From Burkholderiaceae bacterium (GTDB lineage Bacteria > Pseudomonadota > Gammaproteobacteria > Burkholderiales > Burkholderiaceae_C), in the NCBI GenBank assembly GCA_026125795.1, contig JAHCKM010000005.1, forward strand, positions 1-64,000: 64,000 nucleotides of DNA, given 5' to 3'. Position numbers and translations under genes: made by a program. The notes under the pieces were generated by a model. It was not told where the DNA came from. It saw nothing but the letters and a program-made list of their open reading frames with translations, and ran no database searches. Of this stretch, positions 2,565 through 51,317 are shown piece by piece (position 1 is the first letter of the stretch; every line of letters starts with the position of its first letter).

Positions 2565-4367
2565 ATGCGTGACCCACCATTCGGTGCTGCTCAGAGAGGC
2601 ACCACGTTGGCCGAGGCGATGCCCTATCGCAGCGCAGCCGTGGCCAAGCGGTCCCGCTCACAGCGCCCGCGCGGCGCGCACAAGCGCCAGTCGACACGGG
2701 CCGCCCGGGGCTCGGCCACGCACAGCCTGCCCGCGCCCCCGATCCTGTCCCGGTCCGAGCGCCTGCGCGTCCTGTCCGGCTTCGAGACCGTGATCGGGAG
2801 CGTCTATGCGCACCTGCCGCTCAAGCGCGCGCGCTACGGATTCGATCCGGTGCAGCGGCTGCGCATCCTGCGCACGCAGGTCGACGCGTTCGACGACAAC
2901 AACTTCCATGCCGAGCTGGCCGCCATCCTCACGCAGATGCGCGACTACCACACGCGCTACACCGGACCGGCCGCGTTCGAAGGCAAGGTGGCCGTGCTGC
3001 CGTTCCTGCTGGACCTGTACGGGCCGGAAGACAGCCCGACCTACGTGGTCACCAAGGTCGGCAAAGGGCTCGATGCGGGCTTCGTGCCGGGCGTGCTGCT
3101 GCAGTACTGGAACGGCGTGCCCATCGACCTCGCGGTGCTGCGCCACTCCAACGAAGAATGCGCCGGCCGGCCCGACAGCGTGCGAGCGGCGTCGCTGCAA
3201 AGCCTCACCTTCCGTTCCCTGCAGTTCGGCCCGCCGCCCGACGAGGAGTGGGTGATCGTGGGTTATCGCAAGGTCAACGCCGCCGGCAGGCCCAGCGGTG
3301 CACTGAAGGAGCTGCGCATCGCCTGGCGGGTGGTCGATCCGACGGCGGTGGCGGCGCTGCTGCCCAGCGCGCCCAGCGGCAAGCGCGCCGCGCGGCTGCG
3401 CCGTGCCATGGCGGTGAACCCGGCGGCGGCCGCCGTGCGTTTGGCCAAGATGCTGCTGTTTGCGCCCGAGGCGCTCACCGGCGCAAAGCCGCCTAACGCG
3501 CCGCATGTGGCGTCGCGCGCGTCGCGCCGGCGCGGCAACGGCGGCATCGCCGCCACCACCATCGACACCACGCTGCCCGACACGGTGCGTGTGCAGAGCC
3601 TGCAGGTGCAGGGCCGCTCGTTCGGCTACCTGCGCATCTGGGGCTTCGACACCGACCCCGACAAGTTCATCGCCGAGCTGCTGCGTGTGATCCCTCTGCT
3701 GCCCACCGAGGGGCTGATCATCGACGTGCGCAGCAACCCCGGCGGCTACATCGTCGCCGCCGAGCGCGCGCTGCAGCTCTTCACATCCAAACGCATCGAG
3801 CCGGTGCGTTTCTCGGCACTGGCCACGCCGTTCACGCGCGACATGGCCGTGCTGGCGGGCCTCGAGGGTGACCTCGATCCGTGGAAGGCATCGCTGCAGG
3901 CCGCGGTGCGCAACGGCGAACACTATGCACAACCGCTGCCGATCACCGCTCCCGCCGAGTGCAACGACATTGCCGTCGAAAGGCGCTACGCCGGGCCGGT
4001 GGTGCTGGTGGGCGACACCAACACCTACTCTTCCGGCGACATCTTCGCAGCCGGTTTCGTCGACCACGGCATCGGGCCGTTCGTCTGCGTCGGCGCGGCC
4101 ACCGGCGCCGGCGGCGCCAACGTGTGGGACTACGCCGAGCTGCGCCGCGCGCTGGCCGGCACGCCGCTCGCGCTGCCGTCGCTGCCCGCCGGCATCGGCC
4201 TCACGTTCTCGTTTCGGCGCATCACGCGCAGCGGCCCGAGCGAAGGCCTGACGATCGAAGACGTCGGCGTGCAGGGCAGGCCGTATGCGATGACGCGCAA
4301 CGACCTGCTGTTCGGCAACGGCGATCTGCTGCTGCATTGCATCGCGCTGCTGCGCCGGCCGCGCTGA
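2565..4367 (+). CDS. S41-family (tail-specific protease-like) peptidase
   Basis: 600 residues, with the start chosen because GGGAG lies 7 nt upstream. The first 60 residues are basic and disordered-looking, with no clear signal peptide. The C-terminal half has the S41 core: a beta strand with GLIIDVRSNPGG near residue 385, and TYSSGDIFAAGFVDHG near residue 485, where the nucleophile serine would sit. The middle (about residues 80-240) resembles the N-terminal helper region of secreted C-terminal processing proteases but lacks an obvious PDZ domain. It is flanked by a divergent NRPS gene and a convergent DUF1015 gene, so it is probably a single-gene unit. The substrate is unknown. Confidence 0.72.
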   Translation: MRDPPFGAAQRGTTLAEAMPYRSAAVAKRSRSQRPRGAHKRQSTRAARGSATHSLPAPPILSRSERLRVLSGFETVIGSVYAHLPLKRARYGFDPVQRLRILRTQVDAFDDNNFHAELAAILTQMRDYHTRYTGPAAFEGKVAVLPFLLDLYGPEDSPTYVVTKVGKGLDAGFVPGVLLQYWNGVPIDLAVLRHSNEECAGRPDSVRAASLQSLTFRSLQFGPPPDEEWVIVGYRKVNAAGRPSGALKELRIAWRVVDPTAVAALLPSAPSGKRAARLRRAMAVNPAAAAVRLAKMLLFAPEALTGAKPPNAPHVASRASRRRGNGGIAATTIDTTLPDTVRVQSLQVQGRSFGYLRIWGFDTDPDKFIAELLRVIPLLPTEGLIIDVRSNPGGYIVAAERALQLFTSKRIEPVRFSALATPFTRDMAVLAGLEGDLDPWKASLQAAVRNGEHYAQPLPITAPAECNDIAVERRYAGPVVLVGDTNTYSSGDIFAAGFVDHGIGPFVCVGAATGAGGANVWDYAELRRALAGTPLALPSLPAGIGLTFSFRRITRSGPSEGLTIEDVGVQGRPYAMTRNDLLFGNGDLLLHCIALLRRPR

Positions 4368-33164: not shown

Positions 33165-33182
33165 ATGAAAGCCGCGTTTCAT
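33165..33182. promoter_or_regulatory. Inverted repeat upstream of the RND operon
   Basis: ATGAAA-GCCGCG-TTTCAT, 6-bp arms with a 6-nt spacer, 163 nt before the adaptor gene. Candidate regulator site; no regulator gene is adjacent. Confidence 0.35.
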
Positions 33183-33344
33183 CGACTCAACCCCTCCCTC
33201 GACGTTGATGGGGACACCCCGCGCTTCGTAGACTGCACCCACACGCAGGGACCCCCATGTGAGCGAACAGCCGGCCTTGGCGCTGGCTGCTCGCTCGCCC
33301 TGTTTTGGGCTCCCGATGCTGACTCCAGAAAGAAAGGCACCTGC

Positions 33345-34619
33345 ATGAAAGCCTCGAACAAGGCCGGCCAACCGTTTCGTCGTTCGTCCGCGTCATCGCC
33401 TCGCCTGCCGCAGGTGGTGCACGCCGCGGTGGTGCTGGCCAGCATCGCCGCAGCGTCGGTGGCGCTGGTGGCTTGCGGCGACAAGTCGCACGCCCAGGGC
33501 GCAGGCCCGGCCGGCGGTCCGCCGCCGGCGGCGGTGTCGGTGATGGCGGTGGCCGCGACCAACCTGGCGATGAACTACGAGTACGTCGGCCAGACCGCCG
33601 GCTCGCGCGACGTGGAGGTGCGCGCGCGTGTCTCGGGCATCCTGCTGAAGCGCAATTTCACCGAAGGCGGCAACGTCAAGAAGGGCCAGTCGCTGTACAG
33701 CCTCGACCCGGCGCCGTTCCAGGCCGCGCTCAACCGCGCCGATGCCGACGTGGCGTCGGCCGAGGCCAAGCTGGCACAGGCCACGCGCACGCTCGCGCGC
33801 CTGAAGCCGCTGTGGGAGGCGCGCGCGGTCAGCCAGCGCGAGTACGACGATGCCGCGTCGGCCGAGCAGGTGGCGCGCGCCGACTTGAAGGGCGCGCAGG
33901 CGCGCCGCGCCGAGGCCGCGCTCAACCTGGCGTGGACGCGCGTCGAGTCGCCGCTGTCGGGCGCGGTGGGCCGCTCGCAGGTCAGCGAAGGCACGCTGGT
34001 GGCCGGCCCGAGCACCTTGCTGACCACGCTGACGCAGACCGATCCGGTCAAGGTGCGCTTCGGCATCGCCGACACCGACCAGATGAAGTGGCGCAGCGAA
34101 GTGGCGGCCGGCCAGCTCAAGCTGCCGCCCAACGAAGCCTTCACGGTCGAGGTCAAGCTCGCCGACGGCAGCGTCTATCCGCGCAAGGGCAAGCTGCTGT
34201 TCAGCGACACGCGCGTGTCGGGCAACACCGGTACCGTCGAAGCCGAGGCCGAGGTGCCCAACCCCGATGGCGTGCTGATGCCGGGGCAGTTCGTGCGCGT
34301 GCGCCTGAGCGGCGCCACGCGGCCGCAGGCGATCACCGTGCCCACGCGGGCGGTGCTCGAAGGGCCGCAGGGCCGCTTTGTCTACACGGTGGCCGACAAC
34401 AAGGCGATGCCCAAGCCGGTGCAGGTGGGCGACCAGATCGGCGACCAGTGGGTCATCACGCAAGGCCTGAACGCCGGCGACGCCGTGATCGTCGACGGCA
34501 TGGCGCGCATCTTCTTCCCCGGCGCGCCGGTGCAGATCGCGCAGGCGCCCGCCCCCGGCGCGAGCGCACCGGCGGGTCCGGGCGCGAGCGCGCCGGCGCC
34601 CAAGACCGCCTCCAAATAA
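33345..34619 (+). CDS. RND efflux periplasmic adaptor (MFP, AcrA/MexA-like)
   Basis: 424 residues from ATG 33345, with AAAGG upstream. Lipoprotein-type N-terminus with lipobox near VALVACGDK. Then the barrel-sandwich half (VEVRARVSGILLKRNFTEGG), a helical hairpin (residues about 125-190), the second lipoyl half (VESPLSGAVGRSQVSEG), the beta-barrel, and an Ala/Pro-rich tail. It bridges the inner-membrane pump and outer-membrane channel. First gene of a three-gene operon; the pump follows by 18 nt. Confidence 0.93.
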   Translation: MKASNKAGQPFRRSSASSPRLPQVVHAAVVLASIAAASVALVACGDKSHAQGAGPAGGPPPAAVSVMAVAATNLAMNYEYVGQTAGSRDVEVRARVSGILLKRNFTEGGNVKKGQSLYSLDPAPFQAALNRADADVASAEAKLAQATRTLARLKPLWEARAVSQREYDDAASAEQVARADLKGAQARRAEAALNLAWTRVESPLSGAVGRSQVSEGTLVAGPSTLLTTLTQTDPVKVRFGIADTDQMKWRSEVAAGQLKLPPNEAFTVEVKLADGSVYPRKGKLLFSDTRVSGNTGTVEAEAEVPNPDGVLMPGQFVRVRLSGATRPQAITVPTRAVLEGPQGRFVYTVADNKAMPKPVQVGDQIGDQWVITQGLNAGDAVIVDGMARIFFPGAPVQIAQAPAPGASAPAGPGASAPAPKTASK

Positions 34620-34637
34620 CAGAACCGGAGCACGCGC

Positions 34638-37600
34638 ATGTTCTCGCGTTTCTTCATCGACCGGCCGATCTTCGCGGCCGTGCTGGCGATCTTCATCGTG
34701 ATCGCCGGCCTGTCGGCCACGCGCTCGCTGCCGATCGCGCAATACCCCGAGATCGCGCCGCCGGTGGTCACCGTGGTGGCCACCTATCCCGGCGCCAGCG
34801 CCGAGGTGATCGAGCAGACCGTGGCCGCGCCGCTCGAGAACGCCATCAACGGCGTGGAGAACATGATCTACATGGGCTCCACGTCCACCAGCAACGGCAT
34901 CGTGACGATCCAGGTCACGTTCGACATCGGCACCAACGCCGACCAAGCGGCGCAGCTGGTCAACAACCGCGTCAAGCAGGCCGAGACCAAGCTGCCGCAG
35001 GAGGTGCGCCGCCAGGGCGTCACGGTGGAGAAGGGCTCCTCGGCGTTCCTGCAGGTGCTGGCCTTCTTCTCCGACGACGGCAGCAAGGACGACCTGACGA
35101 TCAGCAACTTCGTGACGCTCAACGTGCTCGACCAGATCAAGCGCGTGCCGGGCACCACCAACGTGCAGATCTTCGGTGCCAAGGACTATGCGATGCGCAT
35201 CTGGCTCAAGCCCGATCGGCTTGCGCAGCTGCGCCTGACCACCACCGACATCGCGCGCGCCATCAGCGAGCAGAACGCGCAGTTCGCCGCCGGCAAGGTG
35301 GGACAGAGCCCCACCGGCGGGCCGCAGGAGATGGTCTACACCATCACCACGCAGGGCCGGCTGTCCGACCCCAAGCAGTTTGAAGAGATCATCGTGCGCG
35401 CCAACCCCGACGGCAGCACGCTGCGCCTCAAGGACGTGGCGCGTGTCGAGCTCGGCTCCAAGGACTACGACTTCATCGGCCGCATCAACGGCAAGGCCGC
35501 CACGCTGGTGGGCGTGTTCCTGCAGCCGGGCGCCAACGCATTGAGCGTGGCCAAGGAAGTGGAGCGCACCACCGAGGCGCTTAAGGAGCGCTTTCCGCGC
35601 GGCATCACCTACTCGATCCCGTACGACACCACGCGCTTCGTCGAGGTGTCGATCAAGGAGGTGATCAAGACGCTCACCGAGGCGATGATCCTGGTGATCC
35701 TGGTGGTGTACCTGTTCCTGCAGAACTGGCGCGCCACCTTCATCCCGCTGGTGGCGGTGCCGGTGTCGCTGATCGGCACCATGGCCGGGCTGCTGCTGCT
35801 CGGCTACTCGATCAACACGCTCACGCTGTTCGGCATGGTGCTGTCGATCGGCATCGTGGTCGACGACGCGATCGTCGTGCTGGAGAACGTCGAGCGCATC
35901 ATGCACGAGGAGAAGATGGCCGCGCGCGAGGCCGCCATCAAGGCGATGCGCGAGGTCTCCGGCCCGGTGATCGCGATCGTGCTGGTGCTGTGCGCGGTGT
36001 TCGTGCCGATCGCCTTCCTGGGCGGCCTCACCGGCGAGCTGTACCGCCAGTTCGCGGTGACGATCGCCATCTCGGTGGTCATCTCCGGCATCACCGCGCT
36101 CACGCTCACGCCCAGCCTGTGCGTGCTGCTGCTCAAGCGCGAGCACCGGCAGCCCGGGCGTGTGTTCCAGGCCTTCAACCGCTGGTTCGCCCGCGTGACC
36201 AACCGCTACGTGCACGGCGTGGGCTTCATGGTGCGGCGCGCCGGCATCGGCCTGCTGCTGTTCGCCGGCATGGTGGCGGCCGCCGTGGGTCTGTGGCGCA
36301 TCACGCCGGGCTCGCTGGTGCCCGACGAGGACCAGGGCTTCTACATCTCGGCGGTGATCCTGCCCGACGGCGCGTCGCTGCAGCGCACCGACGCCGTGGT
36401 GGCCGAGGTGCTGCAGGCGGTCAAGTCCAACCCGTACAACCTCGATGCGGTGGCCTTCACCGGCTTCGACTTCCTCGGCGGCGGCTACCGCAACAACGCG
36501 GCCACCATCTTCGTCACGCAGAAGCACTGGGACGAGCGGCCGCTGCCGGTGCAGGCGCTGGTGGGCGACCTGTTCATGAAGACCGGCGGCATCAAGGAGG
36601 CGCTGGTGCTGGCGTTCAACCCGCCGCCGATCTTCGGCCTCGGCACCGCCGGCGGCTTTGAGCTGTACATCCAGAACCGCGGCGAGGGCGGCGCCAAGCG
36701 GCTGGCCGAGGTGTCTCAAGCGTTCATGGGTGCGGCGTCGCAGAGCAAGGTGCTGGCCGGCGTGCAGACGCTGTGGCGCGCCAGCACGCCGCAGCTGTAC
36801 GTGGACGTGGACCGCGAGCGTGCCAAGGCGCTCGGCGTGCCGGTGGACGAGGTGTTCAACACCTTGTCGGCCACGCTCGGCAGCTACTACGTCAACGACT
36901 TCAACAAGTACGGCCGCACCTGGCAGGTGCTGATGTCGGCCGAGAGCGGCTTTCGCAAGAGCCCGGGCGACATCGGCCGCATGTGGGTGCGCGCCGCCGG
37001 CGGCGAGATGGTGCCGGTGTCGTCGCTGGCCACGGTGAAGTACGCCGCCGGCCCCGAGATGCTCGACCGCTTCAACAACCTGCCGGCGGTGAAGATGTTC
37101 GGCCAGGGCGCGCCGGGCGTATCTTCGGGGCAGGCCATCGCCGAGGTGGAGCGCATCGCGCGCGAGGTGCTGCCGCCGGACTTCAGCATGGACTGGGGCG
37201 GCGCGTCGTACCAGGAGAAGCGCAGCTCGGGCACGTCGGGCCTGGCGCTGGTGCTGGGCGCGCTGATGGTGTTCCTGATCCTGTCGGCGCAATACGAGAA
37301 GTGGTCGTTGCCCTTGTCCGTGATGCTGGCGCTGCCGTTCGGCACCTTCGGCGCGCTGGCCGCGGTGTGGCTGCGCGGCATGACCAACGACGTGTACTTC
37401 CAGATCGGTCTGGTCACGCTGCTGGGCCTGGCGGCGAAGAACGCGATCCTGATCGTCGAGTACGCATCGCTCAAGCACCACGAGGGCATGAGCGCGAGCG
37501 CCGGTGCGCTGGAGGCGGCTCGCCTGCGCTTCCGGCCGATCATCATGACGTCGCTGGCGTTCATCCTCGGCGTGCTGCCGCTGGCGTATTCGAGCGGCGC

Positions 37601-37859
37601 GGGCGCCGCAGCCCGTCGCTCCGTGGGCACCGGCGTGATGGGCGGCATGCTGGCCGCCACCTTCCTCGCGATCTTCTTCGTGCCGATGTTCTTCAAGATC
37701 ATCACCGAGCGCAGGCTGCGCGAGAAACGAAGCACCGAAGAAATCCAGGCCGAGGCGGCGCACGTGCACGCGCACGGCGCCACGCAGGCGTTGCACCACC
37801 CGCATCGCACACCCACGGGCGGCCCGGCGCTGCCCGACGCGAAAGGAGAACCGGCGTGA
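34638..37859 (+). CDS. RND multidrug efflux permease (HAE1/AcrB family)
   Basis: 1073 residues, usual family length plus a short extra tail. FFIDRPIFAAVLAIFIVIAG at the N-terminus, proton-relay aspartates in SIGIVVDDAIVVLENVERIM (helix 4), and the matching second-half helices ending GVMGGMLAATFLAIFFVPMF. This marks a hydrophobic/amphiphilic drug pump (HAE1), not a metal-exporting CusA type. The C-terminal 40 residues are His/Ala-rich (HVHAHGATQALHHPHR), which is unusual. GGAG precedes the ATG; the stop overlaps the next start by 4 nt (GTGA). Confidence 0.95.
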   Translation: MFSRFFIDRPIFAAVLAIFIVIAGLSATRSLPIAQYPEIAPPVVTVVATYPGASAEVIEQTVAAPLENAINGVENMIYMGSTSTSNGIVTIQVTFDIGTNADQAAQLVNNRVKQAETKLPQEVRRQGVTVEKGSSAFLQVLAFFSDDGSKDDLTISNFVTLNVLDQIKRVPGTTNVQIFGAKDYAMRIWLKPDRLAQLRLTTTDIARAISEQNAQFAAGKVGQSPTGGPQEMVYTITTQGRLSDPKQFEEIIVRANPDGSTLRLKDVARVELGSKDYDFIGRINGKAATLVGVFLQPGANALSVAKEVERTTEALKERFPRGITYSIPYDTTRFVEVSIKEVIKTLTEAMILVILVVYLFLQNWRATFIPLVAVPVSLIGTMAGLLLLGYSINTLTLFGMVLSIGIVVDDAIVVLENVERIMHEEKMAAREAAIKAMREVSGPVIAIVLVLCAVFVPIAFLGGLTGELYRQFAVTIAISVVISGITALTLTPSLCVLLLKREHRQPGRVFQAFNRWFARVTNRYVHGVGFMVRRAGIGLLLFAGMVAAAVGLWRITPGSLVPDEDQGFYISAVILPDGASLQRTDAVVAEVLQAVKSNPYNLDAVAFTGFDFLGGGYRNNAATIFVTQKHWDERPLPVQALVGDLFMKTGGIKEALVLAFNPPPIFGLGTAGGFELYIQNRGEGGAKRLAEVSQAFMGAASQSKVLAGVQTLWRASTPQLYVDVDRERAKALGVPVDEVFNTLSATLGSYYVNDFNKYGRTWQVLMSAESGFRKSPGDIGRMWVRAAGGEMVPVSSLATVKYAAGPEMLDRFNNLPAVKMFGQGAPGVSSGQAIAEVERIAREVLPPDFSMDWGGASYQEKRSSGTSGLALVLGALMVFLILSAQYEKWSLPLSVMLALPFGTFGALAAVWLRGMTNDVYFQIGLVTLLGLAAKNAILIVEYASLKHHEGMSASAGALEAARLRFRPIIMTSLAFILGVLPLAYSSGAGAAARRSVGTGVMGGMLAATFLAIFFVPMFFKIITERRLREKRSTEEIQAEAAHVHAHGATQALHHPHRTPTGGPALPDAKGEPA

Positions 37860-39885: not shown

Positions 39886-41007
39886 TCAGGCCGCGCGCGG
39901 CGCGCCGATGGCGAACACATCCACCGCCTGCGCCTTGCCCTTGAACGACACCGGGCCGAGCGCGTCGGCGGCGATGCGGCCGGCCAGTGCGGCCTGCGTG
40001 GCGCCGTCCACCAGGATGCCGCGCGCCGCGATCTTGGTGTGCGCCTCGAGCCGCGCGGCCAGGTTCACCGTGTCGCCCACGCAGGTGTAGGTGGCGCGCT
40101 CCTGCGTGCCGGTGTAGCCGGCAAACACCTCGCCGGTGGCGATGCCCACGCCGATGGCCAGCGCGGCCTTGCCCTCGGCCGCGCGCTCGACGTTGAGCAG
40201 TTCCACCATCTCCACCATCTCGAGCGCGGCGCGCACCGCCGCCAGCGGCGGCTCGGCCACCGGCAGCGGCGCGCCGAAGATCGCCATCAGCCCGTCGCCG
40301 ATCATCTGGTTGACCACGCCGCCCTGCGCGGTGATGGCCTCGAACATCAGCGTGTACCAGGTGTTGAGCAGCTCGATGGTCTCCTCCGGCCCGTGGCTCT
40401 CCACGATCGACGTGAAGCCGCGGATGTCGCAGAACAGCACCGTGGCCGGCAAGCGCTTGCCGCCGAGCGCGAAGCCGCTTTGCTGCAGGTCGGCCGCCAC
40501 CGCCGAGGTCGCAAAGCGTTCCACCATCGCCTTCTGCTGGTCGCGCAGGCGTTTCTTCTCGAGGCTGGAATCGACACGCGCCTTCAGCAGCACCGGGTTC
40601 ACGGGCTTGTGCAGGAAGTCGTCGGCGCCGAGCTCGATACATCGCACGACATGGGCCAAGCCTTCCAGCGAGCTGGTGACGATCACCGGTGTGTCGCGCA
40701 ACGCAGGGTCGGCCACGAGCTGCTCCATCACCTGGAAGCCGTCCATCTCCGGCATCTCCATGTCGAGCAGCAGCAGGTCGTAGCCGCCGCGGCGCAGCAT
40801 CTCGAGCGCGACGCGGCCGTTCTCGGCCGTGTCCACTTGATGACCTTGCAATGTCAGACTGCGCGCCAGCAACAGGCGGTTGACCTTGTTGTCGTCGGCC
40901 ACCAGCAGCCGTGCGCCGCGGGAGCGCGACGCCGGGCCGCCCCAAGTCGCGCTCGCGCCCCCTTGGGGGGCCGACGCCGAAGGCGTCTGGGGGGCGCCAT
41001 CAGCCAT
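39886..41007 (-). CDS. Response regulator with class III adenylate/guanylate cyclase output
   Basis: 373 residues. N-terminal REC domain (residues about 32-155) with VADDNK and phospho-acceptor Asp in LLLLDMEMPEMDG, and Lys in LHKPVNP. A short coiled linker (KKRLRDQQKAMVERF) is followed by a class III cyclase: metal Asp in LFCDIRGFTS and in MIGDGLMAIFG, and the catalytic Asn/Arg segment VGDTVNLAARLEA. Whether it makes cAMP or cGMP cannot be read safely. The first about 28 residues are encoded by a GC-rich interspersed repeat. The start overlaps the Hpt stop by 8 nt, placing it at the end of the giant-kinase operon. Confidence 0.92.
   Translation of the reverse strand: MADGAPQTPSASAPQGGASATWGGPASRSRGARLLVADDNKVNRLLLARSLTLQGHQVDTAENGRVALEMLRRGGYDLLLLDMEMPEMDGFQVMEQLVADPALRDTPVIVTSSLEGLAHVVRCIELGADDFLHKPVNPVLLKARVDSSLEKKRLRDQQKAMVERFATSAVAADLQQSGFALGGKRLPATVLFCDIRGFTSIVESHGPEETIELLNTWYTLMFEAITAQGGVVNQMIGDGLMAIFGAPLPVAEPPLAAVRAALEMVEMVELLNVERAAEGKAALAIGVGIATGEVFAGYTGTQERATYTCVGDTVNLAARLEAHTKIAARGILVDGATQAALAGRIAADALGPVSFKGKAQAVDVFAIGAPRAA
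40931..41000. repeat. GC-rich interspersed element, copy B, inside the cyclase gene start
   Basis: Shares GCCGGGCCGCCCCAAG exactly with copy A (23146-23161), followed by GCGCCCCCTTGGGGGGC and a GGCGTCTGGGGGGCGCCAT end. It is translated as the low-complexity N-terminus of the REC-cyclase (ADGAPQTPSASAPQGG...). Confidence 0.65.
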
Positions 41008-41329
41008 CGATCAAGGCCTTCAACGCGGCGACCGCGCGGTCATATTCCGCCTGCAGCGCATCGATGCCGCTTGCATCCGGCGGCAGGCCGCCCTGCTCGA
41101 GCTCGCGGGCCTGGGCGCCCAGAGCCGTCGCGCCGAAGGTGTTGGCGTTGGTCTTCAGCGAATGCGCAGCGCGCCGAAAGCGCTCGGCGGCGCCGGCCTT
41201 CTGTGCGGCGCGCAGCTCGGCGATCATCGGTGGCGCCTCCTCGAAGAAGGTGTTCACCAGCTCGACGACGAAGTCGGTGCCGGCGCTGTCCTGCAGCTCG
41301 GCGAAGGCAGTGGGGTCGATGACAGGCAT
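41000..41329 (-). CDS. Stand-alone Hpt phosphotransfer protein
   Basis: 109 residues, all-helical. The phospho-accepting histidine is in FRRAAHSLKTNANTFGA, the Hpt signature. Such proteins move phosphate between REC domains of a hybrid kinase and a final response regulator. It starts 1 nt after the giant kinase stop and its stop overlaps the cyclase start by 8 nt, so all three products should be made together. Confidence 0.93.
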   Translation of the reverse strand: MPVIDPTAFAELQDSAGTDFVVELVNTFFEEAPPMIAELRAAQKAGAAERFRRAAHSLKTNANTFGATALGAQARELEQGGLPPDASGIDALQAEYDRAVAALKALIDG

Positions 41330-41330
41330 G

Positions 41331-44300
41331 TCAGGCGTCCTTGCGTGCAGCGGTCTGCGTCAGGGCTTGGACCAGCGCATCGACGCGGATCGGCTTGGTC
41401 ACGTAATCGTCCATGCCCGCGGCCAGGCATTCCTCGCGGTCACCCTGCATCGCGTTGGCGGTCATCGCGACGATGCGCGGCCGCGCGCCGCGCGCGAACT
41501 TTGCCGTGATGCGCCGCGTGGCCTCGAGCCCATCCATCTCGGGCATCTGCACGTCCATCAGCACCACGTCGTACGGCTGGCGCTCGATGCTCTCGATGGC
41601 CTCGATGCCGTTGCTGGCCACGTCGGCGCGGTAGCCCATCTGCGACAGCAACCGCAGCGCCAGCTTCTGGTTCACCACGTTGTCCTCGGCCAGCAGGATG
41701 CGCAGCGGGTGCTGTGCCGCCATCGCAGGATCGATGGCCGGCCTCGCGGGCGCCTGCCGCGCACGGGGCGCGACGGTTTCGCGCGCCAGTAATCCCATCA
41801 GCGTGTCGAACAACTGCGACTGGTGCAGCGGCTTGCCCAGGTAGGCCGCGAACAGCCCCTCGGTGTCGCCGGCCTCGCGACGACCCAGCGACGAGAACAG
41901 CACCAGCGGCAGCGCGGCGTCGATGGCGCGGATGCGCGCGGCGAGCTGCAGGCCGTCGAGCTCGGGCATGTGCATGTCGAGGATCGCCACGTCGAATCGT
42001 TGGCCCGCGGTGAGCCAGCGCAGGGCCTCGTCCGGCGAGGCGGTGTCGCGCGAGTCCATGCCCCACTTGGCCATCTGCAGCGCGAGCACCTTGCGGTTGG
42101 TGGCGTTGTCGTCCACCACCAGCACGCGCTTGGCCGCGAGCCCGGGCTGCTCGCCGATGAACTCGCGCCGCGCACTCGGCGGCTGCGTGGCCAGCGGTGC
42201 CACGATCGTGAAGCGGAAGGTCGAGCCCAGCCCGGGCCCGGCGCTCTCGGCCGTCATCGTGCCGCCCATCAGCTCGGCGAGGCGCTTGCTGATCGCCAGG
42301 CCCAGGCCGGTGCCGCCGTACCGGCGCGTGGTGGACGAGTCGGCCTGGCTGAAACGCTGGAACAGGCGGCCCATGCCCTCCTCGGTGAGCCCGATGCCGG
42401 TGTCGCGCACGACGAAAGCCACCTCGTGCAGGCGGCCGTCGAGCGGCCGCGCGCTGACGGTGAGCACGACCTCGCCGCTTTCGGTGAACTTCACGGCGTT
42501 GGCCAGCAGGTTGAGCAGGATCTGCCGCAGCCGCGTCACGTCGCCGTCGAGCGCAGCCGGCACGTCGCCGTCGAACAGGTACGCGAGGTCGAGCTGCTTG
42601 TCGGCCGCGCGCGGCGCCACCAGGTCGAGCGCCGTCTCCACGCACTCGCGCAGGTCGAACGGATGGGCCTCGATGTCCATGCGGCCCGACTCGATCTTGG
42701 AGAAGTCGAGGATGTCGTTGATGATCGTCAGCAGCGCATCGCCGCTGTCGCGGATGGTGTTGGCGTAGTCGCGCTGCTCGTCGTTGAGCGTGGTGTCGAG
42801 CAGCAGGCCGCTCATGCCGATCACCGCGTTCATCGGGGTGCGGATCTCGTGGCTCATCGTGGCCAGGAACGCGCTCTTGGCTTCGTTGGCGGCCTCGGCC
42901 TGATGGCGCGCGCCCTCGGCTTGCTCGCGGGCCTGCTCCGTTTCACGGATCAACCGCGCGTTCTTCATCGCCAGCTGTGCTTGGGCCGCGAACGACTGCA
43001 CCAGCGCGATCTGCGGGGCGGTGAAGGGTCGCACCTCGCGGCGCACCAGCGTGAAGACGCCGCCGACGTGGCCCTGGTCGTCGACTAGCGGAACGCCCAG
43101 GTGGGTGCGGATCTGCCCCAGCTCGACGCACGCGACGAAGAACGGAATGCGCTTGCGGTAGACGTCGGTGTCGCTGATGTCGTCCACATGCAGATACGGT
43201 CCCTGTTGCCAGTCGCGACCGAGCAGATAGGCGATCGGCACGTCGCCTTGCATCGCCGGGGCATCGAGAAAGGCCTGCGGCATGCGGCTCTGTCCGCCGC
43301 TGAAGCGCACCGACTCGCCATCGGCGAGCCACAAACCGCCACCGTCGGCCGAACACAACCTGCACGCGCGGTCGACGATCGCACCGAAGACCGGCTCGAG
43401 CTGCCCCGGCGAGGCATTGATCACCTGCAGCACCTCGGAGGTGGCGGTCTGCCGCTCCAGCGCCTCCATGGTCTCGTTGAACAGCCGCACGTTCTCCATC
43501 GCGATCGCCGCCTGGTCGGCGAACGACGTGACGAGCTCGATCTCGTTGTCGCTGAACGCCCGGGCCTCCGCACGCCCCAGGCTCAGCACGCCGACGGCCT
43601 TGCCCTCGCGCAGGATCGGCACGCCCAGCAGCGTGCGGTAGCCGCCCACGCGCTGCACGTCGGGCCGCTCGTAGCTCTTGTCGGTCGCGGCGTCGACCAC
43701 CTGGGTGGGTTGCCCCGTGGCCGCCGCGCGCGCGGTGATGCCGTCGCGCAGCTTCAACGACGGCGGGTGCGCCGCGAGGTGATCGACCAGCGTCTGCGAC
43801 GCACCGAACAGCCCCGCCGCGACACACAGATCGCCCTCGATGCGGAAGATCACCCCCAGCGATGCGCCACAGAGCCTGGCAGCGGTGGCGATCAACGTAT
43901 TCAGCACCGCCGGCAGGTCGAAGGTCGAGCGGCTGATCGCCTTCAGCACCTCGGCCGTGGCAGTCTGGCGCGCCAGCGCCTCCTGCGTCTCGTTGAACAG
44001 CCGCACGTTCTCGATGGCGATGGCCGCCTGGTCGGCGAATGTCTTGAGCAGATCCTCGTGGACTTTGGCCGCCGGCCCGGCCTGGGTCCAACCGACCACG
44101 ATCGCGCCCAGCGCACGACCCTCGCGCAGCATCGGAACACCGAGCAAGCTGCGCCAACCGCCGGTGGTGGCCAGCGCATGGGGATAGTCCGGTTCGGCGA
44201 GCGCATCGGGCAACGCCACGATCGAGCGGTCGCGGATGACCCGGGCGGACACCTGGGACGAGTCGGGCCGCATCGGGTACAGGCCGCGCAGCAACTCGAC

Positions 44301-47300
44301 GAACTCCGGCCTCGAGTTGCTGCTCGCCACCAGGTGGATCAGCTCGCCGTCGAACCGGAAGACGTTGGCGAACAGCGCGTCGCACAGCTGACCCGCGCGA
44401 TGCGCGATGGTGTCGAACACCGGCTGCAGGTCGGAGCGCGAGCTGCTGATCACCTGCAGGATCTCGGCCGTTGCCGTCTGCCGCTGCAACGCCACCTTGG
44501 TCTCGTTGAACATGCGCGCGTTCTGGATGGCGATCACCGCCTGATCGGCAAAGCTCTGCAGCGCGGCGGTCTCGCGCGTGCTGAAGGCTTGCGGCTGCTT
44601 GCGCACGACGAACAGCGCCCCCAAGCCGCGCCCCTGCCACATCAGCGGCACCGTCACGACGGTGCGGCCGCCCATGCGCCGGCTCACCTCGAGCGCATCG
44701 CGCAGGTCCGCATCGGCGTCGTCGCCCGGGTCTTGCGCGTCGACCACGTTGACGAGGTGTCCGCGGCGCACCGCCAGGCCGCTCAGCGTCTGCTCGGCCG
44801 GCACGGGGAAGCTGGCGTGGTAGCGCATGGGCTCGGGGCCGCGATACGCGCCGAACTGCACCTGACCGTACTCGTCGATGAGGTCGATGCCCATCACCTG
44901 CGGTCCGACCATGCGCTCGCAGGCGTCGAGGATCTTCTCGAACACCGGGACGGCGCTGTCCATCGACTGGCTGATGACCTGGAGCACCTCCGCCGTGGCG
45001 GTCTGCCGCTCCAGCGCCTCCTGCGTCTCGCGGAACAGGCGTGCGTTCTGGATCGCGATCACGGCCTGGTCGCGGAAAGACTCGGCCAACGCGATCTCGG
45101 CGTCGCTGAAGGCGCCGGGCCGTCGGCGTACCAGCGACAGCGCTCCAATGCAATCGCCTTGCTGCAGCAGCGGCACCATCAGTGAGGCGCGTACGCGCTC
45201 GGATTGCTGAATCGCACGTTCCTGCGGCGGCAGGTCGATCGCACTCCAGTCGGGCAAGTGCAGCGTCGTCTTGTCGGCGAACACCCGCGAGGGGAAGTTG
45301 GCTTGCGGGTCAACCGGTATGACCTTGCCCGATAGCGTCGCGTGCGCCTCGCCCGGACTGATTCGCGCCGCGGCACAGAAGCCATCGCCCTGAACCCGCA
45401 GCAGCACGGCGGTGTCGCAGTCGATCAGCTTCACTGCCGTGGCGACGATGGCGTCGAACACCGGCTGCTCGTCGGTGGGCGATCGGCTGATCACGCGCAG
45501 CATGTCGGCGGTGGCGGTCTGGCGCGCCAGCGCCTCGTTGGTCTCGTTGAACAGGCGCGCGTTCTGGATCGCGATCACCGCCTGGTCGGCAAAGGTCTGC
45601 AGCAGTTCGATCTGCCTGTCGGCAAACGCACCGATCGTCAGCCGCGCCACGGTGATCGCGCCGACGACCTCGTCATCTTGCAGCATAGGGACGCCGAGGC
45701 TGCTGCGAAAGCCCGCACGTAGCGCGGTCCCGATTGGTGCGTAGTCGGCCTCGGCGAGCACGTCGGCGAGGTTGATCACCGCACGCTCGCGGATCGCCCG
45801 CGCCGCGATCGAGTTGCTGCTGGGCGGCATGGGGAATACGTCGCGTATCGCCTGCAGGCCGTTGGCGTCGAGTCCGAAGGCGCCGCCGATCTGGATGCTC
45901 TGGCCGTCGAACGTGAACACGAAGCCGTAGTGCGCATCGCACAGCTTTGCAGCGCGCTCGCCGATGGCGTCGAACACAGGCTGCGTGCTGGTCGGTGAGC
46001 TCGAGATCACGCGCAGGATCTCCGCAGTGGCGGTTTGTTTCTCCAGCGCCTCCTTGGTCTCGTTGAACAGCCGCGCGTTCTGGATCGCGATCACCGCCTG
46101 GTCGGCGAAGGAGCGCAGCAGCGCCATCTCTTTCTCGGTGAAGCCGTCGTGCGCGTCGCGCGCGATGTGAAAGGCGCCGATGACGCGCTCGTCCCACCAC
46201 AGTGGTGCCACTAGCACCGAGAAGCTGCCCATGCGCTGCGCCGCCTGGCGCAGCGACTCGGGCGCCTGCGGGTCGTTCAGCACGTCGCCGAAGAACAGAG
46301 CCTTGCGCTCGGCGCTGGCCCGCGCCATCGGCGTGTCGACGAACGGCTGCGGAAAGGTGGCCTTCAGCGCCGCGGCCAGCTCGGCCTCGCGCGGCGAGCG
46401 GTCGCGATAGGCGGCCAGGTCCACCTGCTCGTCGTGGCGCAGGAAGATCGCCATGCGCTGGAACGGCGTCAAGCGGGCGCAGGCATCGAGGATGCGTTCG
46501 AACACCGGCGCCGGATCCGACATCGACTGGCTGATCGCGCCCAGCACCTCGGCCGACGCGGCCTGCTGCTCCAGCGCCTCCTTGGTCTCCTTGAACAGGC
46601 GCACGTTCTCGATGGCGATCACGGCCTGGTCGGCGAAGGTCTGCACGAGCGCGATTTCGTCGGCTTCGAACGGGCGCGGCTCGCGGCGGTTCAGACCGAC
46701 CACCCCAATCGCCACGCCGTCGCGCATCATCGGCACCGAGAGCACCGTGCGGAAACCGAAGCGCTGTTGCAGCGCGCGCGTGTCGGGGTATTCGGTATCG
46801 AGCAGCGGCACGATGTCGTGGATGTGCACCACCTCGCGCAGCGCGGCGGCGCGAGCGCTCGGCGTGCTGGCCTGCAGCGCGATCTCCAGTTGCCCCGGAT
46901 CGCCCGACGGGCTGCGGTCGGGGGCGCGCAGCCAGTGTGCGGCCAGGCGCAGTGACGCTCCCGAGACGAGCCACACGGTGTCCCAGTCGGCATCGCACAG
47001 CGCGGCGGCGCGTTGTGCCACCACGTCGAGCACCGGCTGCACGTTGGTCGGCGAGGCGCTGATCACCTTCAGCACTTCGGCCGTGGCGGTCTGCCGCTCC
47101 AAGGCCTCGTTGGTCTCGTTGAACAGCCGGGCGTTCTCGATGGCGATCACGGCCTGGTCGGCAAAGGTGCGAGCGAGCGCGATCTCCTTGTCGTCGAAGG
47201 CGCCCACCTGTCCGCGCAGGATGGCCATGCAACCGATGGCCTTGCCTTCGCGCAGCAACGGCACGAACAAGCCGGAGCGGTACCCCAGTGCAATCGCCAG

Positions 47301-50300
47301 CTCGCGCATGCGTGGGAATCGCCGGGTCGCTTGCTCGGTGTCTGGGACATGGATCAAGCTGGAATCCAGGATGCAGCTGCCGGCCGCGCTGCAGCGATCC
47401 AGGGGCCAGGGCTCGAGCACGGCGCCGGAGTACGCCGAGCTGCCGTCGGCCATCGTGTCACTGGCGAAAGCGACGCTCTCGATCAGATGGTTCCTGGGCA
47501 ATGCCAGAGCGACCGCCTTGCCACCGAACAAGCGCCGGCAGCTGCCAACGATGGCGTCGAACACCGGCTGCGTGTCGGTGACCGAGCCACTGATCACGCG
47601 CAGGATCTCTGCCGTGGCGGTCTGCCGTTCCAGCGCCTCCTTGGTTTCGCTGAAAAGGCGCGCGCTCTCGATCGCGATCTCGGCCTGGCTCACGAAGGCC
47701 CGCATCAGCGCGAGCTCCTTTTCGGCGAATGGGCGCACCGTCTTGCGCAGCACGCCGATCGCGCCGAAGCACTCGTCGCCGCGCATGATCGGCAGCATCA
47801 GCGCCGACTTGAAGCCGTACTTGTCGTGGATCTGCCGCTCACGCGGCGGTAGATCGACCGCCGTCCAGTCCGGCACGTGCACCATCGTCCGGTTCAGGAT
47901 GGCCTGCGACGGGAAGTCAACCTGCGCATCGAGCGGCACCAGGTCCGGCAGCGGATCGGTGGCCGGCTGGCCCGGCCTGGCCACCGACATCACGCGGTAG
48001 CTGTCGCCTTCGCGCGCGATCAGACCGGCTTGGTCCACGCCGAAGAGCTGCAGGGCGGTGTTGACGATGGCCTTGAACACCGGCTGGATGTCGCCGGGCG
48101 ACTGGCTGATGACGCGCAACACGTCGGCCGTGGCCTTCTGCTGCTCCAGCGCCTCCTGGGTCTCCTTGAAGAGCCGCACGTTCTCGATCGCGATCACCGC
48201 CTGATCGGCAAACGTCCTGAGCAACGCGATCTGCTTGTCCGACAGGGGACCGGGGGCCAACCGGATCACCGACACCGCGCCGACGGCGACCCCTTCACGC
48301 ATCATGGGCACCACGGTCATCGCGCGGTAGCCGGAGGTCGCGAAGTTGCGCTTGCCGACCTCGAACCCGCTGCCGTCGGCAGCCAGCACATCGGGCACGT
48401 CGACCATGCGGCCATCGAGCAGCGCTGCGCCGTGCATGTAGTCGCGGCTCAACGGAAACGGGAACAAGCTGCGCCAGCGCGCAGCCAGGTCGGCGTCGCT
48501 TTCGGCGATCGCCATCATCCGCACCTCGCCCGCTTCGGGCCGCGTCACCGCGACAGCAGCCTGCGTGAACATGCGCACGCCGGCGCGCACGATGGCGTCG
48601 AACACCGGCTGCACGTCGGTCGGCGAAGCGGCGATGACCTGAAGAATGTCCGCGCTGGCGGTCAGCTGCTGCAGAGCCTCCTTGGTCTCGTTGAACAGCC
48701 GGGTGTTCTCGATCGCGATCACCGCCTGGCGGGTGAAGGTGTTCAGCAGCTCGATCGACTTGTCGGGAAACGGCCCCGCTTCCGGCCGCATCACGGTCAG
48801 TGCGCCCATCGTCGCGCCGGCGTGGGTCATCGGCACGCTGAGCACGCTGCGGTAGCCGGTGGAGCGGGCGACCTCCTGTGTCGCGTACGACGCGGTCGAC
48901 AGCGCGAACACGTCGGGCACCATGCGCACCGCGCCGTCGCGGATCGCCATCGCGGTGACCGAGCCGTCGCCCGGCGGCATGGGGAACAGCCGGCGGGCGG
49001 CTTGCACGCCCTGCGGGTTGACGCCGAAGGTACTCGCCACGTGGATCAGCGCGCCGTCGTAGCGGAACACCATGCCGTAGTGGGCGCCGGTCAGCCGCGC
49101 CGCGCGCTCGGCGATGGTGTCGAACACCGGCCCGGTGTCGGTGGGCGAGGCGCTGATGACCTTGAGGATCTCCGCCGTCGCCGTCTGTCGCTCCAGCGCC
49201 TCGTGGGTTTCGTTGAACAGCTGCGCATTCTGGATCGCGATCACCGCCTGGTCGGCGAAGGTCTTCAGCAGCGCGATTTCCTTTTCGGCAAACGGCCGCG
49301 GCGGCTGGCTCAACAGCACGATCGAGCCGACACCCCTGTCCTGCCAGAGCATCGGCGCGACCGTCATCGAGTAGTTGCCCGAGCGCTCGGCCACCGCGCG
49401 CGATGCGGCCGGCACGTCAGCTGCGCCCAGCACGTCGGCGATGTGGAGCGGCCGCCGCTGGCGGATCGCGACGCCGCTCGCAGTCTCATCGAGCGGGCGC
49501 GGAAAGGTCTGCACCACCCCTTGGAGCATTGGGCCGCGGAATGCGGCGGCATGCAGCCGCCCATCGTCGCCGACGCGGAAGATGCCAAGCTGCTCGGTGG
49601 CGAACAGGTGCTGACAACGGTCGAGGATGGCCTCGAACACCGGCGTGGTGTCGGCCACCGAGTTGCCGATCACCTGCAGCACCTCGGCCATCGCGGTCTG
49701 CCGCTCCAGTGCTTCCTTGGTCTCGTTGAACAGCCGCACGTTCTCGATCGCAATCACTGCCTGGTCGGCGAAGGTCTGCAGCAGCGTGACCTGGTCCGGA
49801 GGGAAGGCGCCGATGGCCGGCCGCGTCACCGCGATCGCTCCGATCACCTGGCCGTCCTTGAGCAACGGCACCGCCATGTTGCTGCGGTAGCCGGCCACCC
49901 GGGTGGCACTTTTCAGGCCGTACTCGGGATCGGCGAACACGTCGGGAATCTGCACCGGCGCGCGCTCGACCATGGCGCGGCCGAGGATCGAACTGCGATC
50001 GAGCTTGCGCGGAAACCCCGCCTGCATTGCGGCACCGGCCTCGGCCGTGACGCCGCGGTACGCCACCAGGTGCACCAGCTCGCCGTCGAGCCGCGCCACG
50101 CCTCCGACCGCAGCCTTGCACAACGCCATCGCGCGATCGGCAATGGCATCGAACACCGGCTGCACGTCCGTCGGCGACTCGCTGATCACCTTCAGCACCT
50201 CGGCCGTCGCGGTCTGCCGCTCCAGTGCTTCCTTGGCCTCATTGAACAGCCGCACGTTCTCCAGCGCCACGCCCATGCTGCCGGCCACCGTCTGCAGCAA

Positions 50301-51317
50301 GCGCACCTCGGCCTCGCCGTAGGCGTTGTCGCGTTTGAAGTCTTCGATCGTGATCACGGCGCAAATGCGGTTGCTGCCCGGCACCGGCACGAACGCGGTC
50401 GAGCGCGCGGGGTCGGGCCCGGGGAGGCCGGGAAAGCCGGCCGCGGCAAGCTGCGCCGCGCTGTTGAACACCAGGGGCTGCCGCGTGGCGATCACGGTCG
50501 GCCCGGGACCGTGCTGGCGCATCGGCCGCGGCGGCAAGGTCTTGCGTTGTCCGTGCTCGATGACGTAGAGCGGCCGCACGAGCTGGTTGCCCGGCTCGAT
50601 CCAGCGGATGCCGATGTCTTCGGAATGCAGCACGCGGCGTAGCGTGTCGCCGACCAGATCGACGATGCTCTGGAAGTCCAGCGCGCGAGACAGACCTTGC
50701 TGGATGCTGTTGTTGACCGCCAGCTCGGCGTCACGCTGTTCGGCCTCGGCCAGCAGGCGCCGGTTCTCGCCGGCCAGTTGCGCCAGCTCGGCGTTATGGC
50801 CTGGGCGCGCGAGGCGCTCTCTGCCGACGGCGCGCCAGCGGGCGATGGCCGCCGCGCCCTGCATGGCCAGGGCGGTCAGCAGGTCGCGGTCGGCGCCGTC
50901 GAAGCGGCCGGCGCGGCCTTCGACGTCGGCATACAAGTGGCCGAGCACCTCGTCATCGGCCACCAGGGGCGTGACGATGCACGAGCGCTGTCGGGCCGGC
51001 GCCGCGCCGCGCGGGCCGTGACGCAGCCGCGCGGTGCGCCCGCGCAGCGCCTCGTCGAGCCACGGCCCGATCAGGCTCAGCAGCAGCTGTGCGTCTTCGC
51101 CGCGCGGCAGGCGCGCCAAGGCGACGGTGCGTTCGCCGCCCGACTCGCGCACCAGCAGCACACGCTGCGCCAGGGTGAGCTGCAGCGCGCGCTCGACCAG
51201 ACACGCCTCGATGCGATCGATACCGCGCGCCTGCGCCAGGGCGGCGCTGGCGGCGGCCAGGGCCGGCACGCGCAGGTCCTCGCGGCGGCGCAGCGGCCGC
51301 CGGCCCGTCGGCTGCAT
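41331..51317 (-). CDS. Giant multi-GAF hybrid sensor histidine kinase (3,328 aa)
   Basis: One continuous 3,328-codon gene. N-terminal GAF-like domain (about 20-165), a helical stretch, a second GAF (about 200-355), then 14 further GAF modules at roughly 173-residue spacing to about residue 2785. That makes about 16 in all. Each module ends in a very similar helical linker of the type [20 protein letters not shown], then [16 protein letters not shown]. The kinase core follows: HisKA with phospho-acceptor His 2823 ([15 protein letters not shown]), ATPase with [15 protein letters not shown] and [10 protein letters not shown], then REC1 (phospho-acceptor Asp 3114 in [10 protein letters not shown]) and REC2 (Asp 3255 in [11 protein letters not shown]). 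No signal peptide or membrane helix is seen, so it is cytosolic. GAF domains bind small ligands or chromophores; the ligands are unknown. No conserved phytochrome Cys was noticed. No good Shine-Dalgarno precedes the ATG, so the exact start is less sure than the rest. Confidence 0.92.
42950..50750 (-). repeat. Tandem GAF-linker coding repeat, about 520-bp period
   Basis: The linker-coding segment (plus strand reading like GTCTCGTTGAACAGCCG) recurs near 42960, 43480, 43990, 44505, 45030, 45545, 46065, 46590, 47115, 47650, 48165, 48690, 49215, 49725 and 50250. Linkers are far more alike than the GAF cores between them, giving many short near-identical tracts at which recombination could change module number. 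Confidence 0.85.

What the first reader, a model, noticed from the sequence alone, without database searches (positions are those of the whole stretch)
41331..51317. Soluble hybrid kinase with about 16 GAF domains
A single 3,328-codon gene stacks about 16 GAF modules ahead of one HisKA-ATPase-REC-REC core. Most hybrid kinases carry one to three sensory domains. The absence of membrane segments means all inputs are cytosolic. Such an array could integrate many ligands, or act as one long signalling helix with only a few domains binding anything. The ligand pockets differ in sequence while the linkers are conserved, which suggests diversified sensing.
Basis: partly seen in the sequence, partly recalled or inferred. 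Interest (0 to 1): 0.85.

Follow-up and report, generated by a model that had tools for sequence, protein, structure and literature searches.

The report
Sixteen-GAF kinase relaying to nucleotide cyclase
A bacterium carries one giant soluble sensor protein with sixteen different sensing modules strung on regularly spaced helices, wired through a three-gene relay to an enzyme that probably makes a cyclic-nucleotide messenger, and the modules look as if they have been swapped between bacteria at those helices.

Summary
The gene lies on the minus strand (41331-51317, 3328 aa); 16 of 16 modules individually pass the Pfam GAF cut-off, ahead of HisKA-HATPase-REC-REC, with no transmembrane stretch. 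Relatives with 2-16 repeat modules occur in several phyla; 34 of 62 usable loci have a cyclase downstream against 1 of 68 upstream, and 19 of 20 stretches fetched beside related cyclases hold an HPt.

Three results explain the array. Linker-helix length differs by 0, 7 or 14 residues in 460 of 463 modules, and a confident AlphaFold model shows one unbroken helix between GAFs: a register-locked spine. Each of the 14 repeat GAFs is closer to a GAF in another genome than to any in its own array. Where single modules match between arrays, similarity starts and stops in the linkers, whose silent sites look younger than those of the GAFs. So arrays look assembled by module exchange at linkers, not tandem duplication; some same-genus arrays are nevertheless collinear. 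Ligands and cyclase product are unknown. New variant of a known kind.

The parts
41331..51317 (-). poly-GAF hybrid histidine kinase gene, 3328 aa
   Evidence: ORF and Pfam; even codon-position GC
50778..51317 (-). M1, divergent GAF (aa 1-180)
   Evidence: PF01590 36.5 bits
50274..50759 (-). M2, divergent GAF (aa 187-348)
   Evidence: PF01590 31.1 bits
49758..50273 (-). M3, linker helix + GAF
   Evidence: PF01590 59.1 bits
49245..49757 (-). M4, linker helix + GAF
   Evidence: 48.4 bits; partner in same-genus L142 m4, 66%
48723..49244 (-). M5, linker helix + GAF
   Evidence: 58.6 bits; partner in same-genus L140 m4, 57%
48198..48722 (-). M6, linker helix + GAF, the most widely shared class of this array
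   Evidence: 42.0 bits; class in 10 proteins
47682..48197 (-). M7, linker helix + GAF
   Evidence: 47.6 bits
47151..47681 (-). M8, linker helix + GAF
   Evidence: 44.5 bits; class in 6 proteins
46623..47150 (-). M9, linker helix + GAF
   Evidence: 65.5 bits; partner in same-genus L140 m9, 75%
46095..46622 (-). M10, linker helix + GAF
   Evidence: 51.7 bits
45579..46094 (-). M11, linker helix + GAF (modelled)
   Evidence: 56.5 bits; AlphaFold
45063..45578 (-). M12, linker helix + GAF (modelled)
   Evidence: 56.6 bits; AlphaFold
44538..45062 (-). M13, linker helix + GAF
   Evidence: 41.1 bits; partner in same-genus L140 m10, 46%
44025..44537 (-). M14, linker helix + GAF
   Evidence: 44.4 bits
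43509..44024 (-). M15, linker helix + GAF
   Evidence: 63.5 bits
42978..43508 (-). M16, linker helix + GAF, last before the kinase
   Evidence: 44.7 bits; partner in same-genus L142 m5, 79%
42684..42881 (-). HisKA dimerisation/phosphoacceptor domain (aa 2813-2878)
   Evidence: PF00512
42204..42545 (-). HATPase_c (aa 2925-3038)
   Evidence: PF02518
41784..42128 (-). first receiver domain, limits approximate
   Evidence: two PF00072 stretches; position
41361..41699 (-). second receiver domain (aa 3207-3319)
   Evidence: PF00072
41000..41329 (-). separate HPt phosphotransfer protein, 109 aa, starts 1 base after the kinase stop
   Evidence: PF01627 E 4.4e-15; junction
39886..41007 (-). REC-class III nucleotide cyclase response regulator, 373 aa, start overlaps the HPt stop by 8 bases
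   Evidence: PF00072 and PF00211; active-site residues

Best explanation
It is the sensor of a complete cytosolic phosphorelay whose output is a class III nucleotide cyclase. Shown by sequence: 16 GAF domains, joined from M3 on by linker helices, precede HisKA-HATPase-REC-REC; adjoining genes encode an HPt protein and a REC-cyclase; linker helix lengths change by heptads; each repeat GAF has its nearest relative in another genome. Inferred: two copies dimerise along a parallel coiled-coil spine; ligands bound by some GAFs twist or shift the helix, changes add up along the register-locked spine and set the kinase/phosphatase balance at HisKA; phosphate goes His to REC to HPt to the cyclase's REC and switches cyclic-nucleotide synthesis. 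Inferred from comparison: the array is assembled combinatorially, whole GAF modules being gained, lost or replaced by recombination within the linkers, so the linker serves both as signal spine and as recombination seam.
For: Operon and domains. Output link: 34 of 62 usable loci with a cyclase within 3 kb downstream on the same strand (12 of 16 with 8 or more modules) against 1 of 68 with one within 2.5 kb upstream on either strand; in the own genome 2 of 10 class III cyclases lie within 3 kb downstream of the two strong poly-GAF matches; reverse test, 19 of 20 fetched stretches beside related cyclases hold an HPt match and 12 of 20 hold linker-type GAF modules in an upstream kinase. Spine: linker helix length 0 (328), +7 (129), +14 (3), other 3, of 463 full-length modules, while GAF lengths scatter from -13 to +19; AlphaFold of M11-M12, mean pLDDT 91.7, helix 159-204 unbroken. 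Mosaic: 14 of 14 repeat GAFs closer to another genome (44-79%) than to their own array (32-43%); in arrays of 5 or more, nearest neighbour in the same array for 36 of 375 modules; 74 isolated module matches whose excess identity rises and falls in the linkers; two arrays of one genus with kinase cores 88% identical share only 2 of 11 modules at 50% or more; linker codon identity above codon-usage expectation (0.736 vs 0.607), GAF not (0.541 vs 0.547).
Against: No ligand, dimer, phosphotransfer or cyclase activity is measured. 28 of 62 loci lack a neighbouring cyclase, among them 16 of 20 Bradyrhizobium loci. Module turnover is not rapid everywhere: other same-genus arrays are collinear (L187/L188; Ruegeria and Bradyrhizobium pairs). 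The half-domain test was lopsided (N-half-only matches 1, C-half-only 236, both 637), so exchange inside GAFs is not excluded. Linker silent-site excess could be codon constraint; the orthologous kinase core shows an excess of similar size, and linkers exceed it in only 5 of 21 comparisons with this array. Heptad steps may reflect few ancestral variants, and many loci are close relatives, so counts are not independent.
Confidence: 0.68

Rival explanations
1. Most GAFs bind nothing: the array is a long dimerisation stalk or scaffold, and only one or two modules sense.
For: Helical register is kept while GAFs vary freely; the number of modules differs widely between related operons, and some operons use a second kinase without repeat-type GAFs (L181, L183). 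The protein has no C-[HY] pair as in bilin-binding GAFs (the motif is recalled).
Against: Some GAF classes keep class-specific invariant residues between genomes, e.g. 14 columns in the M6 class (11 modules, 10 loci, two of them near-identical). 14 classes in one array are not needed for a stalk. In the seven-GAF cyanobacterial receptor PtxD at least six GAFs bind a ligand (PMC5812497, passage).
Confidence: 0.3
2. The array grew by tandem duplication inside the gene, and the GAFs then diverged.
For: Repeat architecture with uniform linkers; some arrays hold same-class copies (74 same-protein pairs), e.g. L083, L075, L062.
Against: 14 of 14 modules of this array are nearer to other genomes; 1850 of 1924 within-class pairs lie in different proteins; 5 of 375 nearest neighbours are adjacent copies (close relatives in the set favour neighbours in other genomes).
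Confidence: 0.08
3. Feedback: some GAFs bind the cyclic nucleotide made by the operon's own cyclase, as in cyanobacterial CyaB-type cyclases.
For: Best solved relative by sequence profile and by fold is the tandem GAF of a cyanobacterial adenylyl cyclase (1ykd), followed by cyclic-nucleotide phosphodiesterase GAFs (whole-chain TM-scores only 0.45-0.61).
Against: The full NKxnFx3DE motif of such domains (recalled) is not seen by eye in the module consensus; no GAF class is common to all arrays, the widest being in 24 proteins; module M11 alone is nearer to DevS-type GAFs (2vzw, then DevS).
Confidence: 0.15
4. Silent-site conservation of the linkers reflects codon-level selection (translation, folding or a DNA signal), not recombination.
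For: The same positions prefer the same codon in different groups, e.g. Ser TCG at linker column 32: Betaproteobacteria 0.81, Bradyrhizobium 0.69, Rokubacteria/Chloroflexi 0.65; between-array excess is nearly as large as within-array excess.
Against: Three Rhodobacterales arrays show little or no excess although they keep the linker as protein (L117, L119, L086); isolated module matches end in linkers.
Confidence: 0.3

Closest known systems
BarA/TorS-type hybrid histidine kinases
   Same: HisKA-HATPase-REC core; best NCBIfam matches are TorS and BarA, both below their cut-offs; multistep phosphorelay chemistry
   Different: no membrane part, 16 GAFs, two RECs, HPt on a separate gene, output a cyclase
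PtxD, seven-GAF cyanobacterial photoreceptor (PMC5812497 and PMC6696110, passages read)
   Same: many GAFs in a row, at least six of seven shown to bind a ligand (bilin)
   Different: seven GAFs, bilin-binding; here sixteen and no C-[HY] pair; its output was not looked up beyond the passages
Tandem-GAF adenylate cyclases and phosphodiesterases (1ykd, PDE2/5/6)
   Same: GAF-helix-GAF arrangement, best match by profile and fold
   Different: two GAFs; output enzyme on the same chain; cyclic-nucleotide binding known there, unknown here
Signalling helix (S-helix), Anantharaman 2006 (PMC1592074, passages read)
   Same: about 40-residue helical linker with heptads between signalling domains, can lie between two sensory domains
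   Different: the ERT signature is E-R/Q-Q-T in the linker consensus; repeated 14 times in one protein
Heptad-quantised linkers of phytochrome diguanylate cyclases and LOV kinases (PMC9587094, PMC6798134, passages read)
   Same: natural linker lengths differ mostly by multiples of seven
   Different: those passages treat the linker between sensor and effector; here 14 linkers, 13 of them between sensors and one (before M3) after a divergent GAF
Cyanobacterial CyaC (recalled; not seen in the listing)
   Same: class III cyclase driven by phosphotransfer
   Different: kinase, receivers and cyclase on one chain

Membership tests
hybrid histidine kinase | HisKA with H-box, HATPase_c, receiver with phosphoacceptor Asp on one chain | tested here: met
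   HisKA 2813-2878, HATPase 2925-3038, two REC with DMHMP and DVQMP (motifs by eye)
phosphorelay | HPt and output response regulator encoded next to the kinase | tested here: met
   genes 41000-41329 and 39886-41007
phosphorelay | phosphate actually passes His-REC-HPt-REC | not testable with these tools
   needs biochemistry
GAF domain family | every module scores above the Pfam cut-off | tested here: met
   16 of 16
class III nucleotide cyclase | two metal Asp, transition-state Asn and Arg (residues recalled) | tested here: met
   window protein has all four; 47 cyclase matches in the loci: 46, 47, 44, 47 of 47
canonical adenylate cyclase | Lys that specifies adenine (recalled rule) | tested here: not met
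   Gln in place of Lys, Thr at the second site; the first site is R14, K14, Q9, L4, H4, T1, N1 of 47, so no product is assigned
S-helix | ERT signature in the central heptad | tested here: not met
   consensus E-R/Q-Q-T; the +7 linker form was not tested for it
S-helix | helical heptad linker between signalling domains | tested here: met
cyanobacteriochrome / bilin GAF | chromophore Cys followed by His/Tyr (recalled) | tested here: not met
   no C[HY] in the protein
cNMP-binding GAF | NKxnFx3DE motif (recalled) | tested here: inconclusive
   full motif not seen by eye in the consensus; binding without it not excluded

The most novel reading that the evidence does not exclude
A family of evolvable sensor arrays: soluble kinases that take up, lose and reorder GAF sensor cassettes by recombination at linker DNA that also encodes the register-locked signalling helix, so that any inserted module is automatically in phase with the kinase, the sum being reported as a cyclic-nucleotide signal through an HPt relay.
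Probability: 0.42. Interest if true: 0.82.

Novelty: new variant of a known kind. Interest (0 to 1): 0.64.

Why it matters
How many inputs can one kinase integrate, and how do sensors gain new inputs without losing coupling to the kinase? Here both the number (2-16 repeat modules) and the identity of sensor modules vary on one conserved spine and output, giving natural sets for testing additive versus gating integration along a coiled coil, and a natural rule (keep the linker in multiples of seven) for adding modules. It also assigns an output, a REC-cyclase, to large kinases that some records annotate only as 'GAF domain-containing protein'.

Tried and rejected
Tandem duplication within the gene: rejected for this array. 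Heme of DevS type: M11's best single matches are DevS-type GAFs, but by eye the residue aligned with what I recall as the heme histidine is not His; bilin: no C[HY]. A universal cyclic-nucleotide feedback module: no class is shared by all arrays. Frame artefact: one open frame with even codon-position GC. Promoters/terminators: nothing above shuffles. 'No linker homogeneity means stable arrays', from the collinear Ruegeria pair: dropped, because L187/L188 and Bradyrhizobium pairs are collinear too. Module turnover as a clock: not usable; 23 pairs with kinase-core identity 0.85 or more have a median shared fraction of 1.0, while among them L044/L059 and L054/L059 share none at that call's threshold; L044/L059 share 2 of 11 at 50% or more. 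Half-GAF exchange test: inconclusive. Rows dropped: L043 and L049 as duplicates of L054 and L101; L041 and L042 from the cyclase count because 100-N runs lie at the array ends, turning 34 of 64 into 34 of 62 (a table copied by hand). L045 counts as 'no cyclase' although one search places one just outside the stretch fetched; L062 counts as 'no' although a REC-cyclase frame lies about 3 kb upstream. 129 of 592 modules were left out of the length count as not full-length and 48 of 592 out of the clustering.
Full report
What is there. The minus-strand gene 41331-51317 encodes 3328 residues. Sixteen of sixteen modules pass the Pfam GAF cut-off singly. M3-M16 are a repeat family of 171-177 residues, each made of a conserved linker helix and a variable GAF; M1 and M2 are divergent. 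HisKA, HATPase and two RECs follow. No membrane segment. Codon-position GC is even along the gene, so the frame is not an artefact.

The operon. One base after the kinase stop, a 109-aa HPt gene begins, and its stop overlaps the start of a 373-aa REC-class III cyclase gene. The phosphorelay residues expected are present by eye (H-box, REC Asp, HPt His in HSLK, REC Asp in the cyclase). The cyclase keeps metal and catalytic residues but has Gln where adenylate cyclases have Lys and Thr where many have Asp (the rule is recalled). Its product is therefore left open.

Is the cyclase link real? Among loci with 2 or more modules and at least 2.2 kb downstream, 34 of 64 have a cyclase on the same strand within 3 kb; leaving out two loci with N runs, 34 of 62: 15 of 31 with 2-4 modules, 7 of 15 with 5-7, 12 of 16 with 8 or more. 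Upstream control, 2.5 kb, either strand: 1 of 68. Of the 34, 9 have the layout of the window (kinase with two RECs, HPt, REC-cyclase), 17 have a kinase without REC, a single REC and a REC-cyclase, 8 are other or unresolved. Bradyrhizobium loci mostly lack the cyclase (4 of 20; others 30 of 42). Many loci are close relatives, so these are not independent counts. 19 of 20 have an HPt match, 12 of 20 have at least one linker-type module in an upstream kinase (10 of 20 two or more). Of the other 8, L176 and L179 are under 3.1 kb, L193 is 3.2 kb with a frame matching HK, REC and HPt, L192 has only the cyclase, and L178, L182, L184, L189 have kinase pieces or kinases without modules. Several operons hold two kinases in a row. 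In the own genome two of ten class III cyclases lie within 3 kb downstream of the two strong poly-GAF matches.

The spine. In 463 full-length modules (of 592) the linker helix differs from the window's by 0 (328), +7 (129, in 49 loci), +14 (3), with 3 others that are probably misaligned. Lengths of linker plus loop that are off a multiple of seven are mostly one residue short in the loop after the helix; three of the 328 have six extra residues placed in the loop. GAF lengths by contrast range from -13 to +19. The long linkers look alike in sequence, so independent heptad gains may be few. AlphaFold of M11-M12 (65 aligned sequences) gives mean pLDDT 91.7, pTM 0.75, two GAF folds and one unbroken helix of residues 159-204 between them; a dimer was not modelled. 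Best fold matches are a cyanobacterial cyclase's tandem GAF, PDE5, PDE6, PDE2 and phytochromes, TM-scores mostly 0.45-0.61 over two domains. Heptad-quantised linkers are known for phytochrome diguanylate cyclases and LOV kinases (PMC9587094 and PMC6798134, passages); helical linkers between sensory domains for the S-helix (PMC1592074, passages).

The mosaic. For each of M3-M16 the closest GAF is in another genome (44-79% identity), the closest in the same array 32-43%. Clustering 544 modules at 45% identity gives 215 classes; the 14 repeat modules here fall in 14 classes; in arrays of 5 or more, 36 of 375 modules have their nearest neighbour in the same array and 5 next door. Against the same-genus genome G202 (array cut by the contig end) five modules (M4, M5, M6, M9, M13; 46-75%) match in the same order with unmatched modules between; against same-genus G200, two at 55% or more (M4, M16). 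Between genera, order is scrambled in the arrays compared (L041, L054, L059). Where single modules match and both neighbours do not (74 cases), excess identity over 35411 background triples is 0.03 at the end of the preceding GAF (at most 0.11 anywhere in that module), 0.13-0.18 in the linker up to column 26, 0.26-0.44 through the GAF, 0.10-0.16 in the first 23 columns of the next linker and 0.02 after that. This places the borders in the linkers with a resolution of perhaps 20 residues. Rates differ. L044 and L059, whose genomes (G100, G339) carry the same genus number, have kinase cores 88% identical but share only 2 of 11 modules at 50% or more; L187/L188 of another genus, also at core 0.88, are largely collinear, as are Ruegeria and Bradyrhizobium pairs.

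Silent sites. At positions with the same amino acid, linkers within this array share codons more often than codon usage predicts (0.736 vs 0.607), GAFs do not (0.541 vs 0.547); shuffling codons among same-residue sites never reached the linker value (0 of 1000), against 46 of 1000 for the GAFs. Linker excess exceeds GAF excess in 46 of 49 arrays of 5 or more modules. Excess between arrays is almost as high as within. The orthologous kinase core, compared with this array, has an excess of 0.05-0.18; all-against-all linkers exceed it in 5 of 21 comparisons (among them L063 and L129, whose cores are only 38-48% identical) and fall below in 16. The simplest reading is that linkers share a more recent ancestry than the GAFs, as expected if they are exchanged; position-specific codon constraint remains possible.

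Sensing. No ligand can be named. The M6 class keeps 14 class-specific invariant columns over 11 modules of 10 loci (L065 and L067 near-identical); random sets of modules gave at most 1, but that control ignores common descent. The protein has no C[HY] pair. Precedent that many GAFs of one chain can bind ligands: PtxD, seven GAFs, at least six with bilin (PMC5812497, passage).

Distribution. By record title, poly-GAF loci were found in Beta-, Alpha- and other Proteobacteria, Rokubacteria, Chloroflexi and further, mostly metagenome, records (capped at the best 80 loci). They are patchy: 8 of 369 genomes of the class at E 1e-30, 11 of 200 of the family at 1e-60, 3 of 6 of the genus at 1e-20, each count including the window's own genome. 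The largest relative has 16 repeat modules (L062); L063 and L105 have 14, L041 has 14 with N runs, L057 has 13.

Literature. Ten searches of an open-licence library, judged by titles and abstract beginnings, listed no paper on such kinase GAF arrays or on a poly-GAF phosphorelay to a cyclase. I read passages of five papers and no whole text. Subscription journals are missing from the library, so priority is not established.

Noticed in passing
own genome C4, locus L053 (C4:428000-440000): A second, smaller poly-GAF kinase (1068 aa) followed by a single REC and a REC-cyclase (502-aa frame) with Arg at the base-recognition site: the other layout of the same system in the same genome.
   Followed up: partly
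L068 (CAMATU010000148.1): A metagenome bin titled Klebsiella pneumoniae carries a 10-module array whose kinase core is 77% identical to the window's; the bin label is probably wrong.
   Followed up: no
L065 and L067: Near-identical arrays (modules 97-100%) in bins titled Vicinamibacteria and Gemmatimonadaceae: transfer or mis-binning.
   Followed up: no
L046, L054, L059 (= contig of L177), L142, L180, L187, L188; also L181, L183: Two poly-GAF kinases in tandem, mostly seen ahead of one HPt and one cyclase, or (L181, L183) one poly-GAF kinase and one short kinase without repeat GAFs: two sensors may share one relay.
   Followed up: partly
47 cyclase matches in the loci: The residue that usually reads the base is Arg, Lys, Gln, Leu or His in different members while catalytic residues are nearly fixed; substrate may vary. 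A few of the 47 are not neighbours of an array.
   Followed up: partly
L120: A short array whose reading frame also matches the cyclase profile, i.e. a possible direct GAF-cyclase fusion.
   Followed up: no
window 33165-37859, plus strand: A membrane-fusion protein gene followed by an AcrB-type RND pump gene, close to but not in the operon.
   Followed up: no
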